From Geothrix limicola (GTDB lineage: Bacteria > Acidobacteriota > Holophagae > Holophagales > Holophagaceae): a stretch of DNA of 64,000 bases. The position numbers were made by a program, and so were the translations under genes. The stretch is from positions 186,001 to 250,000 of the forward strand of contig NZ_BSDE01000003.1 in NCBI RefSeq assembly GCF_030268085.1, in the 5' to 3' direction. This document shows, piece after piece, positions 28,753 to 32,663 of this stretch. Position 1 is the stretch's first letter. The number at the start of each line of letters is the position of its first letter. The notes below the pieces were generated by a model, which did no database searches, had not been told where the DNA came from, and saw only the letters and a list, made by a program, of their open reading frames with translations.

Positions 28753-29179
28753 CGGCCTCTTCGTGTACGGCACCCTGCGTGAAGGCGGGTCGAACCACGG
28801 TTGGTTGATGCGCACCCACCCCCAGGGCCTGACCCGTGCCTGGGCGGCCGGGCGGCTCTTCCACCTTCCTGCGGGTTACCCGGCCCTGGTGCCTAGCCCC
28901 GAACCCCCCGACGGTCCACCGGGCCCAGGCTGGGTCCGCGGGGACTTCGTCGGTTACGACGACGAGGCCGACCTCGACTCCGCCCTGGCCGATCTGGATC
29001 CCCTCGAAGGGGTGGAAGAAGGCCTCTTCACCCGCGAAATTCGCCCGGTGATCCTCGATGGCGGCCAGCACTACCGGGCCTGGGTCTACGTGTTCCATGT
29101 GGAACGCCTGCCCCGGCTGGAACGGGAGGCCGTGGAGCTGCTAAATGGGGATTGGACGAGCTGGTTGAATGGCGAATAA
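28742..29179 (+). CDS. Gamma-glutamylcyclotransferase-fold (AIG2-like) protein
   Basis: A 145-aa protein with the GGCT-fold start FVYGTLREGGSNHGWL and the mid-chain DLDPLEGVEEG, where the conserved acidic residue of the fold resides, followed by RAWVYVF. Members cyclise gamma-glutamyl amines or have no known activity. The start overlaps the kinase stop by 11 bp. A ParB-type palindrome variant (29091-29106) lies in its 3' part. It marks the left border of the AT-rich island. Confidence 0.8.
   Translation: MESDGLFVYGTLREGGSNHGWLMRTHPQGLTRAWAAGRLFHLPAGYPALVPSPEPPDGPPGPGWVRGDFVGYDDEADLDSALADLDPLEGVEEGLFTREIRPVILDGGQHYRAWVYVFHVERLPRLEREAVELLNGDWTSWLNGE
29091..29106. other. parS-like palindrome, variant
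   Basis: TGTTCCATGTGGAACG differs from the perfect copies (GTTCCACGTGGAAC core) at one core base (C to T). It lies within the GGCT-fold gene, 9 kb from dnaA. The match is close enough to be a weaker ParB site. Confidence 0.5.
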
Positions 29180-29195
29180 TTAACGAAAATCCGTC

Positions 29196-29225
29196 TTGAC
29201 TTTTTTATCGCAATCCAGCATGTTA
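29196..29225 (+). promoter_or_regulatory. Putative sigma70 promoter of the structured-RNA candidate
   Basis: TTGACT (29196-29201), then 17-18 bases of AT-rich spacer, then CATGTT/ATGTTA as a weak -10. It stands at the start of the low-GC island, on the plus strand, about 6-10 bases before the folded RNA region. Confidence 0.4.
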
Positions 29226-29230
29226 GGCTA

Positions 29231-29324
29231 CGCGTGAGCGCCACTCATTCCCGAAAACCACGGTTCACCCGTGGCAACCCCCAGAGGGTAGCCCAACAGG
29301 GCCTAGGGTTGAGGGCGCTTTTTT
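29231..29324 (+). ncRNA. Candidate structured RNA next to the DUF3800 gene
   Basis: A compact fold is visible. A closing stem agcgcc (29237-29242) pairs with ggcgct (29314-29319) and continues as ctca/tgag after a bulged A. Inside are a hairpin ccacgg-ttcac-ccgtgg (29258-29274), a stem aaccc (29276-29280) with gggtt (29306-29310), and a small hairpin gccc-aaca-gggc (29291-29302). The closing stem is followed by TTTTTT, so it also looks like a terminator ending an RNA of about 90 nt made from the plus strand. Its complement would be the 3' UTR of the DUF3800 gene. From memory, Rfam and comparative surveys list RNA motifs named after DUF3800 genes. I could not match a specific one. Confidence 0.55.
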
Positions 29325-30045
29325 ATTTTCGAAATCGAAAATGCCAACTCGAGAACCCGTGTTCCTCAATTGGGTGGGCTAAGCTTCGAATTTTAAGATT
29401 CATTTCGATATGAGCGCAAAGCGCCAACTTTGCACTGCAAGCATTCGCTGCCAGTTCTTTGCCATTCACTCGAAAGCCGATTGCCCCCATAAAAACATCG
29501 GCCATTTGAATCAAGTCGTGTTCTTTTGAATTCAGAGGTACCACATCTCTTAGTGGGTTTTGAGGCAAACCATATCTCTTGACTAAACCTCTATTCATTA
29601 TGGTTTTAAAATCACTCAATGAATACGAAGTGCTTCTTTGATCAAGAAATAACGAAAATCGATCACCCACTTTTAGATATTTCCCAAACCGATGTAAAAC
29701 AAATTGATACATCATTTTATAAAATGTGGTTTCAGCATTGCCTGCGCTATATTTTTTATGGTCATATTGATGACTATCTATTACCAGCGCATGAAAATGA
29801 GCTACATCATCAAGAAACAATTGCGAGCCTATGTCAACAAATTGAACATATTGTTCGCGTTTTTGGTTCTTCACCTTTGTCCACTTCAACTCTTTGCTCA
29901 TATTTGTTGAAGATCTAAAGGTTTTAATTTTTTCTATTATTGCTGATTCGTGTTTCCTATTTAAAATCAAGCCGCCTATTACATGGTAACGATCAGAAAT
30001 ACATGATTCGTCACAATAGATCTGATAATAGGCGCTTTCAGACAT
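29323..30045 (-). CDS. DUF3800 protein
   Basis: A 240-aa protein of the DUF3800 family, thought to have an RNase H-like fold. The first acidic site is YYQIYCDESCISD near the N-terminus, a second is LFLDQRSTS mid-chain, and the last is DLIQMADVFMGAIG. The function is unknown. The gene is strikingly AT-rich and uses codons unlike its GC-rich neighbours, a sign of transfer. The ATG at 30045 is 9 bases after the gyrA stop, so it rides on the gyr transcript. An in-frame TTG at 30057 is the alternative start. The stop abuts the T-run of the convergent structured RNA. Confidence 0.8.
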   Translation of the reverse strand: MSESAYYQIYCDESCISDRYHVIGGLILNRKHESAIIEKIKTFRSSTNMSKELKWTKVKNQKREQYVQFVDIGSQLFLDDVAHFHALVIDSHQYDHKKYSAGNAETTFYKMMYQFVLHRFGKYLKVGDRFSLFLDQRSTSYSLSDFKTIMNRGLVKRYGLPQNPLRDVVPLNSKEHDLIQMADVFMGAIGFRVNGKELAANACSAKLALCAHIEMNLKIRSLAHPIEEHGFSSWHFRFRK

Positions 30046-30053
30046 TTCGACGT

Positions 30054-32663
30054 TCAATCCAATGACAGCTTTGGTTGAACCCCACCTTCATCGGGGCCCG
30101 GGTGCGCCACTTCGGTTTCACCCAGATCCTCTTCCTCGTCCAGGGCCATGGCGCTGGCGTCGATCTTGGCCAGACCCACCACCCGGTCCTCGGCACTGGC
30201 CAGCTTGAGCAGGCCGACGCCCTGGGCATTGCGGCCCGTCTTGCGGACCTCGTCGATGAGGAAGCGGATGACCATGCCTTCCTGGCTGATGAGCAGGCAC
30301 CCTTCGCCAGGCTTGACGAGCTTGAAGCCCACCACGTGGCCGTTGCGAACCCCGGCGCGGATATTGATGACGCCCGTGCCGCCCCGGCCCTGGAGCCGGT
30401 AGTCCTGGAGGAGGCTGCGCTTGCCGTAGCCCTTTTCGCAGACCGTCAGGAGCATGCCGTGATCCTCGGTGCTTTCGTCGGGCTCGATGCCTTCGGGCAG
30501 GTCCGGCAGGGGATCGGCCACTTCCATATCCACGATGTGATCGCCCTTCGCGAGCTTCATGCCGCGAACGCCCGTGGTGGCGCGACCCGTGGCCCGCACG
30601 TCCTCCTCGGGGAAGCGGATGGCCTTGCCCTGGGCCGTGGCCAGCACGATCTGCTGGGAACCCGTCGAGCGCCGCACGGCCACCAGGCTGTTGCCGTCAT
30701 CGATGTTGAGGGCGATGAGGCCGTTGGCCCGGATGTTGGCGTAGGCCGCCAGGCTGGACTTCTTCACGGTGCCGTCGCTGGTGGCGAAGACCAGGTTTTC
30801 GCCCTCGGGGAAGTCCCGGATGGCCATGAGGGTGACGACGTTCTCCCCGTCCTTCAGCGAGATGAGGTTGCGGATGTGCTTGCCGCGGGTGGAGGCGGCG
30901 GCCTCAGGCAGGTCGTAGACCTTGAGGGCGTAGACAATGCCCTTGTCCGTGAAGGCCATGAGGGTGTCGTGGGCCTTGGTCATGAAGAGCTGTTCGACGA
31001 AATCCTCGTCCTTCGTCTTCATGCCCACCTTGCCCTTGCCCCCGCGGCGCTGGCGCCGGTAGGCCGTGAGATCGGTGCGCTTGATGTAGCCGGCCTTGGA
31101 CATGGTGACGACCATCGGGTCGTCGGGAACCACGTCCTCCATGCGGATCTCGCCGGAGTAGCCGACGATTTCCGTGCGGCGGTCGTTGCCGAACTGCTCG
31201 GCCACCTGCTGCAGCTCTTCCTTGATGACCTTCAAGAGCAGCTTCTCGTCCGCCAAAATGGCCTTGAGACGGGCGATGAGCTTTTCGATCTCGGCCAGTT
31301 CCTCGAGGATCTTCTCGCGCTCCAGGCCCGTGAGGCGCTGGAGGCGCATGTCCAGGATGGCCTGGGCCTGGATGGCGGACAGGCAGAGGCTGGGGTCCTT
31401 CTTGATGGCCGCGGCGGTGGCGAAGGCACCGGCCATGAGGCCGGCCTTGGCCTCCTCAGGGCTCTTGGCGGCGCGGATGAGCTTGATGACCGCGTCCAGG
31501 TGATCGAGGGCGATCTTGAGGCCCAGCAGGACATGGTGCCGCTCCTCGGCCTTGCGGAGCTGGAAGAGGGTCCGGCGGGTGACGACCTCGCGGCGGAAAC
31601 CGATGAACTCCTGCAGCACCTCGCGCAGGGTGCAGATGCGCGGCTGCCCGTTCACGATGGCGAGCATGGTGATGGGGAAGCTGTTCTGGAGCTGGGTCTG
31701 CTGGTAGAGCTGGTTCAGGACGATGTCGCTGGGCTCGTTCTTCTTGAGCTCGATGACCAGGCGGATGCCCTCGCGATCGCTCTCATCCCGCAGGTCGCTG
31801 ATGCCGTCGATCTTCTTGTCGCGCACCAGCTCGGCGATCTTCTCGATGAGGGTGGATTTGTTCACCTGGTAGGGCAGTTCGGTGAACACGATCTGCTCGC
31901 GGTCGCCCGCCCGCTTGATCTGCTCCACGTGGGCCTTGCCGCGGACGACGCAGCGGCCACGGCCGGTGCGGTAGGCGTCCAGCACGCCCTCGGTGCCAAG
32001 CATGAGGCCGCCGCCGGGGAAATCGGGGCCCTTGATGTGGGCCATCAGGCCTTCGAGGCCGAGGCTGGGCTGGTCGATCAGATCCACCAGGGCGTTGCAG
32101 CATTCCCGCAGGTTGTGGGGGGGGATGCTGGTGGCCATGCCCACGGCGATGCCCTGGGAGCCGTTGACCAGCAGGTTGGGGAACCGCGAGGGCAGGACGA
32201 GGGGCTCCTCCATGCTGCCGTCATAGTTGGGCCCGAAATCCACCGTGTCCTGGTCGATGTCGCCCATCATCTCGTTGGCGAGGCGGGAGAGGCGGGCTTC
32301 GGTGTAGCGCATGGCCGCGGGGCTGTCACCGTCGATGGAGCCGAAGTTGCCCTGGCCATCCACCAGCACGTGGCGCATGGAGAAGGGCTGGGCCATGCGG
32401 ACGAGGGTGTCGTAGATGGCGGAGTCGCCATGGGGATGGTACTTACCCATCACGTCACCGACCGTGCGGGCGGACTTCTTGTAGGCCCGGTTCCAGTCGT
32501 TCCCGGCCTCCTTCATGGCGAACAGCACCCGGCGATGGACGGGTTTGAGGCCGTCGCGGACATCGGGCAGGGCCCGGCCGACGATGACGCTCATGGCGTA
32601 GTCCAGGTAGGACTTCCGCATTTCCTTTTCAATTTCCAGGGGCTCGATTCGATTCTGATTCAT
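30054..32663 (-). CDS. gyrA: DNA gyrase subunit A
   Basis: GyrA cuts and rejoins DNA in the gyrase heterotetramer. The catalytic tyrosine is Y120 in [11 protein letters not shown]. The quinolone region [13 protein letters not shown] keeps S81 and D85, the susceptible-type residues. The gyrase box of the C-terminal beta-pinwheel is present as QRRGGKGK. The length of 869 aa is standard. It follows gyrB by 54 bp, with a ParB-type palindrome in the gap. The acidic tail ends ...KLSLD just before the foreign DUF3800 gene. Confidence 0.97.

What the first reader, a model, noticed from the sequence alone, without database searches (positions are those of the whole stretch)
29180..30050. AT-rich DUF3800 island lodged exactly behind gyrA
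Seen: an 870-bp stretch is strongly AT-rich in an otherwise GC-rich window. It contains one gene (DUF3800) starting 9 bases after the gyrA stop and a folded RNA at its far end. Known: DUF3800 proteins look RNase H-like and have no settled function. Inference: this is a one-gene transferred cassette that uses the end of gyrA as landing site and its transcript for expression, possibly a small defence or mobile unit.
Basis: partly seen in the sequence, partly recalled or inferred. Interest (0 to 1): 0.75.

Follow-up and report, generated by a model that had tools for sequence, protein, structure and literature searches.

The report
Mobile nuclease gene with partner RNA
Behind a DNA gyrase gene sits a small foreign two-part unit, a nuclease-like protein gene and a facing, strongly folded RNA gene; related units recur behind unrelated genes in many bacteria, and in several the RNA survives where the protein gene is broken or gone, which looks like a toxin held in check by an RNA, though this has not been tested at the bench.

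Summary
The AT-rich island is real (39.8% GC in a 67.1% GC window) and is an insertion: in 17 of 24 same-genus genomes gyrA and the facing GGACT gene are readable and lie 14-136 bp apart; the other 7 are uninformative. It is not a one-gene cassette. It holds (1) a 240-aa DUF3800 protein, modelled confidently (pLDDT 94.7) on an RNase HII fold, and (2) an 87-nt structured RNA on the opposite strand, converging on the DUF3800 stop codon. On a tree of 100 DUF3800 proteins the RNA marks 26 of the 29 rows outside the RlfA clade and none of the 71 inside it, where 67 have an adjoining ORF instead; the partners tested match PADLOC PDC-M04B. In 17 RNAs, 23 of 30 pairs covary. No Rfam 15 family matches, though DUF3800-linked RNAs as a kind are known. 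RNA-led searches found 15 RNA loci, 7 without an intact DUF3800 gene; in two related orphan copies the RNA diverged less than its flanks. Best reading: an RNA-neutralised nuclease toxin, probably phage defence, carried as a ~0.8 kb cassette. Toxicity, neutralisation, defence and movement are inferred. New variant of a known kind.

The parts
29168..30065 (.). Foreign segment (outer bounds): replaces the short gyrA-GGACT intergenic region and the last codons of both genes
   Evidence: Alignment with 17 closed junctions in the same genus: gyrA tail QPKLGL or QPKLDL became QPKLSLD; GGACT tail, GDWxxYL in 15 of the 17, became GDWTSWLNGE (exceptions L008 GDWAVYF and L019, which also has a longer tail). 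Exact ends are uncertain by about 10 bp on each side.
29323..30045 (-). DUF3800 gene, 240 aa; RNase HII-like fold; D12-E13, D135, D183 conserved; stop codon 29323-29325
   Evidence: PF12686; PADLOC PDC-M04A 126 bits; AlphaFold2 pLDDT 94.7; RNase HII 1eke Z 12.0; D12, E13, D183 invariant and D135 at least 90% in A4 and A5
29236..29322 (+). Structured small RNA, facing the DUF3800 gene; its basal stem is followed by a U-run that abuts and overlaps the DUF3800 stop codon
   Evidence: Covariance model R1 88.6 bits, E 6.6e-21 (this row is one of the 17 that trained the model); 23 of 30 pairs with changes on both sides across 17 rows. The simple terminator scan reported no terminator here; it looks for single hairpins with short loops.
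29236..29320 (+). RNA helices: P1 29236-29252 with 29306-29320; P2 29258-29263/29269-29274; P3 29277-29280/29286-29289; P4 29291-29294/29299-29302; conserved unpaired CGAAAACC and UAGG at the junction
   Evidence: strand folding, alignment A3
29196..29229 (+). Possible promoter of the RNA: TTGACT at 29196-29201, then CATGTT (17-nt spacing) or TTAGGCT
   Evidence: Weak in the window: 19% of shuffles score as well, and the consensus scan did not report it. Of the 17 RNAs of A3, 8 have an upstream promoter score reached by under 5% of shuffles.
30054..32663 (-). gyrA, the upstream neighbour; its stop is 8 bp before the DUF3800 start
   Evidence: ORF; main same-genus DNA matches at 86-91% identity
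28682..29179 (+). GGACT (gamma-glutamyl cyclotransferase-like) gene facing gyrA
   Evidence: PF06094, 74 bits

Best explanation
It is a horizontally acquired two-component cassette of about 0.8 kb: a DUF3800 nuclease with an RNase HII-like fold and a convergently transcribed, highly structured small RNA. Most likely the protein is a conditional toxin (cleaving an RNA or an RNA/DNA hybrid) made at a low level from read-through of the upstream gene, and the RNA, made from its own promoter, binds the protein and holds it inactive, as RCd22 RNA does for AbiF. When a phage disturbs RNA supply or transcription, the nuclease is freed and infection aborts. SHOWN by computation: insertion, RNA, strand, covariation, protein-RNA co-occurrence, fold, RNAs that outlast the protein gene. 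INFERRED: catalysis, toxicity, binding, neutralisation, defence, and how the cassette moves.
For: Insertion: 17 closed sites in the genus and a second closed site in another lineage (L057 versus L193: the same two neighbours 858 bp and 41 bp apart). RNA: 23 of 30 pairs covary, 93.5% of cells paired against 78.4% in shuffles, 0 of 500 shuffles as high. Partnership: on the tree of 100 DUF3800 proteins the RNA marks 26 of the 29 rows outside the RlfA clade and 0 of the 71 rows inside it (one of the 71, L108, has no 3' flank held); RNA and protein identities correlate, r 0.71, 0 of 2000 permutations as high (n 17). Partner exchange: 67 of 71 RlfA-type genes have an adjoining same-strand ORF of at least 100 aa against 3 of 25 of the RNA type; the partners tested (three of the 71, plus P1 RlfB) match PDC-M04B. 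Toxin/antitoxin asymmetry: RNA-led searches gave 15 RNA loci, 8 with an intact DUF3800 gene and 7 without; among the 10 not already known, 3 and 7. Orphan RNAs are constrained: 88 of 91 identical against 66 of 90 and 101 of 116 in the flanks (Fisher p 6e-6 and 0.02). Fold: RNase HII. Defence or mobility genes beside 9 of 19 related cassettes. Precedent: AbiF/RCd22 (PMC12373285, abstract and passages read).
Against: No experiment that I saw shows that a DUF3800 protein is toxic or binds its RNA. The orphan RNAs could be recent remnants, and the two G420 orphans share a loop change, so they are not independent. L174 shows no promoter-like hexamer by eye, and L176 may be an assembly frameshift. 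HHalign finds no sequence-profile support for RNase HII (probability 0.1). The window's own RNA promoter is weak, 9 of 17 RNAs have no promoter score beyond shuffles at the 5% level, and the simple scan reported neither promoter nor terminator for the RNA. The defence-neighbour tally has no background control and not every neighbour was tested. In known type III systems the RNA lies upstream on the same strand, which is not so here. No orphan RNA was found in phages or plasmids by the searches made.
Confidence: 0.55

Rival explanations
1. The RNA is an activating cofactor or scaffold: protein and RNA form an active ribonucleoprotein nuclease that attacks phage nucleic acid, and the RNA is required for activity rather than inhibitory.
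For: Conserved unpaired junction bases; co-inheritance of RNA and protein; the RNase HII / PIWI-like fold suits RNA-dependent cleavage. Elsewhere DUF3800 proteins accompany Cas12a2 (PMC10910872, passages read).
Against: Seven of 15 RNA-led loci keep the RNA without an intact protein gene, which a mere cofactor does not explain. The RNA ends in its basal stem and U-run and has no variable guide-like part.
Confidence: 0.2
2. The RNA acts only in cis: a convergent transcription unit and terminator that limits DUF3800 mRNA by RNA polymerase collision or by closing the transcript, with no protein binding.
For: In the loci that have it beside a DUF3800 gene it lies at the 3' end and converges; in the window it replaces the region between gyrA and GGACT.
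Against: Conserved unpaired sequences across phyla and a three-hairpin junction exceed a terminator's needs. Orphan copies without the protein gene stay conserved.
Confidence: 0.12
3. The cassette is a self-moving element in which DUF3800, alone or with the RNA, makes the cut for its own insertion behind genes.
For: Compact, often placed just behind stop codons (8 of 19), two sets of closed sites, nuclease fold, integrase or recombinase beside L035 and L063 and L043 (as annotated).
Against: No convincing terminal inverted repeats. One RNA copy per genome in 16 of 17 host genomes. Rare: 1 of 396, 2 of 400, 1 of 345 and 9 of 298 genomes (strict filters, which lose weak matches).
Confidence: 0.08
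4. An ordinary AT-rich host gene with a 3' hairpin, inherited vertically.
For: Intact frame directly behind gyrA.
Against: Absent from all 17 informative same-genus junctions; in 396 Acidobacteriota genomes the best other match is 34% identical and the RNA model hits only its own genome. One Acidobacteriota genome outside that draw, L062, has a 39% identical gene with the RNA, in another part of the tree.
Confidence: 0.02

Closest known systems
DUF3800 RNA motifs (Weinberg et al. 2017, cited in PMC10910872 as reference 59; Rfam e.g. RF03075 DUF3800-VIII, RF02969 DUF3800-I)
   Same: Structured RNA next to a DUF3800 gene. In L037 the Rfam DUF3800-VIII RNA has the same convergent 3' position, and its consensus shares CGAA after the basal stem and UGUAGg before its closing strand.
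   Different: This RNA matches no Rfam 15 family: none at gathering score in the 20 loci, and no DUF3800 family up to E 10 for the window or L050. It has three hairpins. Whether one of the 2017 motifs not held in Rfam equals it could not be checked, as the paper is not held.
PDC-M04 (PADLOC-DB candidate phage-defence pair; P1 RlfA-RlfB type)
   Same: The protein matches PDC-M04A (126 bits); P1 RlfA matches at 317.6 bits.
   Different: No PDC-M04B-like partner gene adjoins; the partner is an RNA. Separate clade on the tree.
AbiF with RCd22 RNA (Clostridioides difficile prophage; PMC12373285, abstract and passages read)
   Same: Toxic protein with a small structured RNA that has its own promoter and terminator; the abstract reports neutralisation by direct RNA-protein interaction, in cis and in trans.
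   Different: AbiF belongs to the Abi_2 / Cas13-related family, not the RNase H fold; RCd22 lies upstream of abiF on the same strand, not convergent.
Type III toxin-antitoxin (ToxIN)
   Same: Proposed logic: RNA antitoxin binds a nuclease toxin.
   Different: Recalled, with search listings only: the antitoxin is a repeat array; here it is a single RNA unit, convergent, and the protein fold is RNase HII-like.
RNase HII
   Same: Fold: 1eke_B Z 12.0, 172 residues, rmsd 3.4; D-E tandem in the first strand.
   Different: 12% identity; no profile-profile support; an RNA partner.

Membership tests
DUF3800 (Pfam PF12686) | Score above the curated Pfam cut-off | tested here: met
   51.4 bits against 21
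DUF3800-associated RNA (as a kind) | Conserved structured RNA at DUF3800 genes | tested here: met
   R1 in 26 of 100 tree rows, all outside the RlfA clade; covariation 23 of 30 pairs
Any Rfam 15 DUF3800 RNA family | Covariance-model match at gathering score | tested here: not met
   None at gathering for L048-L064, L067, L070, L073; no DUF3800 family up to E 10 for the window and L050
PDC-M04 candidate defence pair | PDC-M04A protein | tested here: met
   3.6e-37
PDC-M04 candidate defence pair | PDC-M04B partner gene adjoining | tested here: not met
   The neighbours are gyrA and GGACT; 22 of 25 RNA-type relatives also lack an adjoining same-strand ORF of 100 aa or more
Type III toxin-antitoxin | RNA antitoxin made of tandem repeats upstream of and co-transcribed with the toxin (recalled) | tested here: not met
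   One unit, opposite strand, 3' side
Type III toxin-antitoxin | RNA neutralises the toxin by direct binding | not testable with these tools
   Needs expression and binding assays
RNase HII | Fold | tested here: met
   Foldseek 1eke E 1.5e-6; VIA Z 12.0
RNase HII | DEDD active-site residues superposed (catalytic set recalled) | tested here: inconclusive
   D12-E13, D135 and D183 are conserved and the aligned range fits, but coordinates were not superposed residue by residue
RNase HII | Sequence-profile similarity | tested here: not met
   HHalign probability 0.1 against five RNase HII rows
RNA-guided nuclease | RNA with a variable guide segment | tested here: not met
   The RNA is a closed fold ending in a U-run, conserved throughout
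Transposon / insertion sequence | Terminal inverted repeats | tested here: inconclusive
   Only short imperfect inverted matches, e.g. 10 nt in the window

The most novel reading that the evidence does not exclude
The DUF3800 family holds two versions of one anti-phage system that differ in what restrains the nuclease: a co-encoded protein (PDC-M04B/RlfB) in one clade and a convergent structured RNA in the other. The RNA version would be a new RNA-neutralised toxin with an RNase HII-like effector, travelling as a ~0.8 kb cassette behind expressed genes, and its orphan RNAs would protect their hosts against incoming DUF3800 nucleases.
Probability: 0.35. Interest if true: 0.85.

Novelty: new variant of a known kind. 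Interest (0 to 1): 0.68.

Why it matters
RNAs linked to DUF3800 genes are named in Rfam. Eleven papers in the held library contain the word DUF3800; the ten listed do not have it in title or abstract, and the passages read in four of them give the protein-RNA pair no tested function. This locus joins a defined protein clade to a defined RNA family, gives the RNA's strand and structure, an RNase HII-like fold, a sister clade with a protein in the RNA's place, and natural cases where the protein is broken but the RNA stays. Together these turn 'unknown function' into one testable prediction: the protein is harmful without its RNA.

Tried and rejected
Rfam as explanation of the RNA: no family. 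Terminal inverted repeats: GGATTGAACGTCGAA / GGTTGAATGGCGAA at the two ends looked alike by eye, but the search gave only short imperfect matches, no better than internal ones, and nothing convincing in L035, L052 and L057; dropped. Homology to solved structures: none by sequence or by profile. RNase HII by profile comparison: no support. RNA-like sequences on phages or plasmids: two exact-pattern scans of viral contigs and two blastn searches with L049's RNA gave nothing, although the viral contig L035 and the Moorella phage L043 do carry diverged copies next to DUF3800. The relative L179 of the L052 host has other sequence after the shared neighbour, so it is not a clean empty site. PADLOC's name PDC-M04 is in no held paper.

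Rows dropped or limited before counts: L067 (internal stop), L069 (cut by contig end) and L128 (same contig as L035) were left out of the tree. L045, L073 and L037 are counted as lacking R1: L037 has Rfam DUF3800-VIII; L045 folds well at the same place (z -4.36), L073 only weakly (z -2.29). The R1 labels of L043, L086, L092, L100 and L120 rest on the unfiltered search (E 0.004 or better); L073 scored E 0.74 and was not counted. Of the 71 RlfA-type rows, those among L065-L134 were searched with default filters and L135-L145 plus eight of the others with filters off; the only match up to E 1 was L142, E 0.27, some 900 bp beyond its DUF3800 gene. L108 has no 3' flank held. Of the four RlfA-type rows without a partner ORF, L071, L108 and L117 end within 300 nt of the gene. 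In the gap tally L064 (overlap of 35 nt with a 102-aa ORF) was not counted.

Full report
WHAT IS THERE. Between gyrA (minus strand, stop at 30054-30056) and a facing GGACT gene (plus strand, stop at 29177-29179) lies a segment of 39.8% GC in a window of 67.1% GC; no other 723-bp stretch of the window is below 58.2%. It holds a 240-aa DUF3800 gene (29323-30045, minus; PF12686 51.4 bits) starting 8 bases after the gyrA stop, and a stable RNA fold at 29236-29322.

IT IS AN INSERTION. I compared the junction in 24 same-genus genomes. Seventeen have both flanks readable and closed: gyrA stop to GGACT stop 14-136 bp, median 58 bp, in most of them one GC-rich terminator-like palindrome by eye. The remaining seven are uninformative: three show no GGACT after gyrA (another gene by eye), one ends at a contig edge, one has gyrA split at the contig ends and its 3' piece was not fetched, one has Ns at the junction, one gave no gyrA match. 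In the 24 genomes only two DUF3800 homologues were found (G009, G019); they are 34% and 30% identical, not at gyrA, and R1 does not hit those loci (L003, L004). In the window the last codons of both flanking genes are changed (gyrA ends SLD instead of GL or DL; GGACT gains NGE; L019 also has a longer GGACT tail), so the segment replaced the short intergenic region and a few codons on each side. In 396 Acidobacteriota genomes the best other match is 34% identical; one Acidobacteriota genome from the other collection, L062, has a 39% relative with the RNA. On the protein tree the window groups with seven rows, six from Chloroflexota and one viral contig (support 97/86), and L062 lies elsewhere.

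THE RNA IS A CONSERVED PARTNER. All 17 have a matching RNA facing the DUF3800 gene at or within about 30 nt of its stop codon (15 of them, with the window and L035, trained the model; L063 and L064 did not). Alignment of 17 RNAs (A3): a long basal stem, then CGAAAACC, three hairpins, and UAGG before the closing strand. Twenty-three of 30 pairs change on both sides while staying paired; 93.5% of cells pair against 78.4% in shuffles; for all five measures 0 of 500 shuffles reach the observed value; sliding the partner columns destroys the signal. G.U cells outnumber A.C cells 51 to 10, so the facing strand is the transcribed one. A covariance model (R1) also finds the RNA at the same place in genes that did not train it: L063, L064, L067, L069, L070, L079 (E 4.3e-6 or better) and L043, L086, L092, L100, L120 (unfiltered, E 0.004 or better). 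Upstream of the RNA, 8 of 17 have a TTGACA/TATAAT-like pair that under 5% of shuffles reach (mean score 9.2 against 7.5); in the window itself the promoter is weak, and the simple scan reported neither a promoter nor a terminator for the RNA there.

IS THE RNA KNOWN? The kind is: Rfam holds DUF3800 RNAs, and the Science 2023 paper (PMC10910872, passages read) cites Weinberg et al. 2017 for DUF3800-linked ncRNAs. Homologue L037 carries Rfam DUF3800-VIII in the same facing position. But the window's RNA matches no Rfam 15 family, nor do those of L048-L064 at gathering score, and L050 gave only unrelated families up to E 10. The 2017 paper is not held, so a motif published there but not in Rfam cannot be excluded.

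PARTNER EXCHANGE. The tree of 100 DUF3800 proteins has a clade of 71 rows (support 98/96) and 29 other rows. R1 RNAs are in 26 of the 29 and in 0 of the 71 (L108 of the 71 has no 3' flank held); the label needs 3 changes on the tree against 23.2 in shuffles. The three others are L037 (Rfam DUF3800-VIII), L045 (a good fold at the same place, z -4.36) and L073 (weak, z -2.29). In the clade of 71, 67 have a same-strand ORF of at least 100 aa adjoining or overlapping the DUF3800 stop, against 3 of 25 RNA-type genes; three of the four exceptions end near the gene. Three of these partners and P1 RlfB were tested, and all four match PADLOC PDC-M04B; P1 RlfA matches PDC-M04A at 317.6 bits. Five partners, P1 RlfB among them, have no Pfam family. 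So the same nuclease family has a protein partner in one clade and an RNA partner in the other. RNA and protein identities correlate (n 17, r 0.71; 0 of 2000 permutations), as expected of an inherited pair.

RNA WITHOUT PROTEIN. Searching by RNA alone (strict filters), R1 was found in 1 of 396 Acidobacteriota genomes, 2 of 400 of the phylum of G416, 1 of 345 of the phylum of G420 (three copies) and 9 of 298 of the class of G415: 15 RNA loci. Eight have an intact DUF3800 gene: the window, L049, L050, L052 and L054, which were known before from the protein, and L171, L175, L177. Seven do not: L168 (residues about 31-199 deleted, frame lost), L172 (only the first codons left), L170 (only the last codons left), L169, L173 and L174 (no match found), L176 (frameshift, perhaps an assembly error). 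Whether these genomes hold a DUF3800 gene elsewhere was not searched, except that G420 holds an intact pair. In G420 the two orphan RNAs are each 88 of 91 identical to the intact one, with all three changes in the P4 loop, while flanks are 66 of 90 and 101 of 116 identical (Fisher p 6e-6 and 0.02). The two orphans share the loop change, so they are not independent. By contrast, all 17 best protein-led genes have the RNA. Keeping the RNA while losing the protein is what an antitoxin predicts and what a mere cofactor does not.

THE PROTEIN. AlphaFold2 on 25 rows: pLDDT 94.7, pTM 0.92. Foldseek and VIA-align rank RNase HII first (1eke_B, Z 12.0, 172 residues, rmsd 3.4), Argonaute PIWI domains lower (Z about 8). 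D12-E13 (in CDES), D183 and, at 90% or more, D135 are conserved; RNase HII also has a D-E tandem near its start (seen in the host's own RNase HII, GVDEAGRG). No sequence-profile support was found, so the relationship to RNase HII rests on fold alone, and catalysis is inferred.

HOW THE CASSETTE SITS. In 8 of 19 relatives the gap from an upstream same-strand gene to the DUF3800 start is -1 to 19 nt, as behind gyrA here. Thirty neighbour proteins of the 19 loci were scanned with Pfam, not every neighbour. Defence or mobility genes adjoin 9 of 19: L035 (DNA methylase, serine recombinase), L043 (Mrr nuclease; integrase as annotated), L048 (Eco57I, Mrr_N), L049 (BrnA), L050 and L054 (N6 methylase), L061 (Cas6, WYL), L063 (phage integrase), L064 (HerA, which may also be repair); L051 (helicase with HNH) is doubtful; three are housekeeping (CoA transferase L052, biotin carrier L057, acyltransferase L058); for the rest the tested neighbours gave no family or only a zinc ribbon. 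No background rate was measured. The gene is more AT-rich than its flanks in 18 of 19. A second closed site supports a cassette of about 0.8 kb: L057 has DUF3800 and RNA between a biotin-carrier gene and a flavin-reductase gene, 858 bp apart, while the relative L193 (biotin carrier 51% identical) has the same two genes 41 bp apart. No shared terminal repeats were found, so how it moves is unknown.

MECHANISM, WITH WHAT IS SHOWN AND WHAT IS NOT. Shown by computation: a foreign two-part unit, a real and strongly constrained RNA, its strand, its tie to one side of the DUF3800 tree, an RNase HII-like fold, and RNAs that outlast the protein gene. Inferred: the protein is a toxic nuclease, low-level translation comes from the upstream transcript, the RNA binds and silences it, and phage infection releases it. 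The nearest tested analogue is AbiF with RCd22 RNA, where the protein is toxic and the RNA neutralises it by direct interaction in cis and in trans (PMC12373285; abstract and passages read). It differs in protein family and gene order.

VERDICT. The 'one-gene cassette' is in fact a protein-RNA pair. As a kind it is known; as a defined RNA family with a partner exchange and orphan RNAs it is a new variant, with a clear test to make.

Noticed in passing
L166 (G420 C180) and L167 (G420 C200): One Ignavibacteriales genome holds an intact DUF3800-RNA pair and two orphan RNAs with promoter-like hexamers; the two contigs are about 92% alike around the locus, and one lacks the protein gene.
   Followed up: partly
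L044:2483-3651 (phage P1 rlfA-rlfB): P1 rlfA-rlfB matches the PADLOC candidate pair PDC-M04A/PDC-M04B; the record's annotation calls it possibly associated with lytic replication.
   Followed up: partly
L061:1-2422: The DUF3800-RNA pair of Thiomargarita lies beside a Cas6 gene; the stretch before the gene has CRISPR-repeat-like short repeats by eye.
   Followed up: no
L070, L086, L092, L100, L120 (3' end of DUF3800): Melainabacteria-type DUF3800 genes carry a shorter, AT-rich version of the RNA with the same CCGAA and GUAGG junction bases; these five loci gave no Rfam match at gathering score.
   Followed up: partly
gyrA-GGACT junction, L012, L014, L020: In three same-genus genomes gyrA is followed by a different gene instead of GGACT, so this junction is rearranged in part of the genus.
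   Followed up: no
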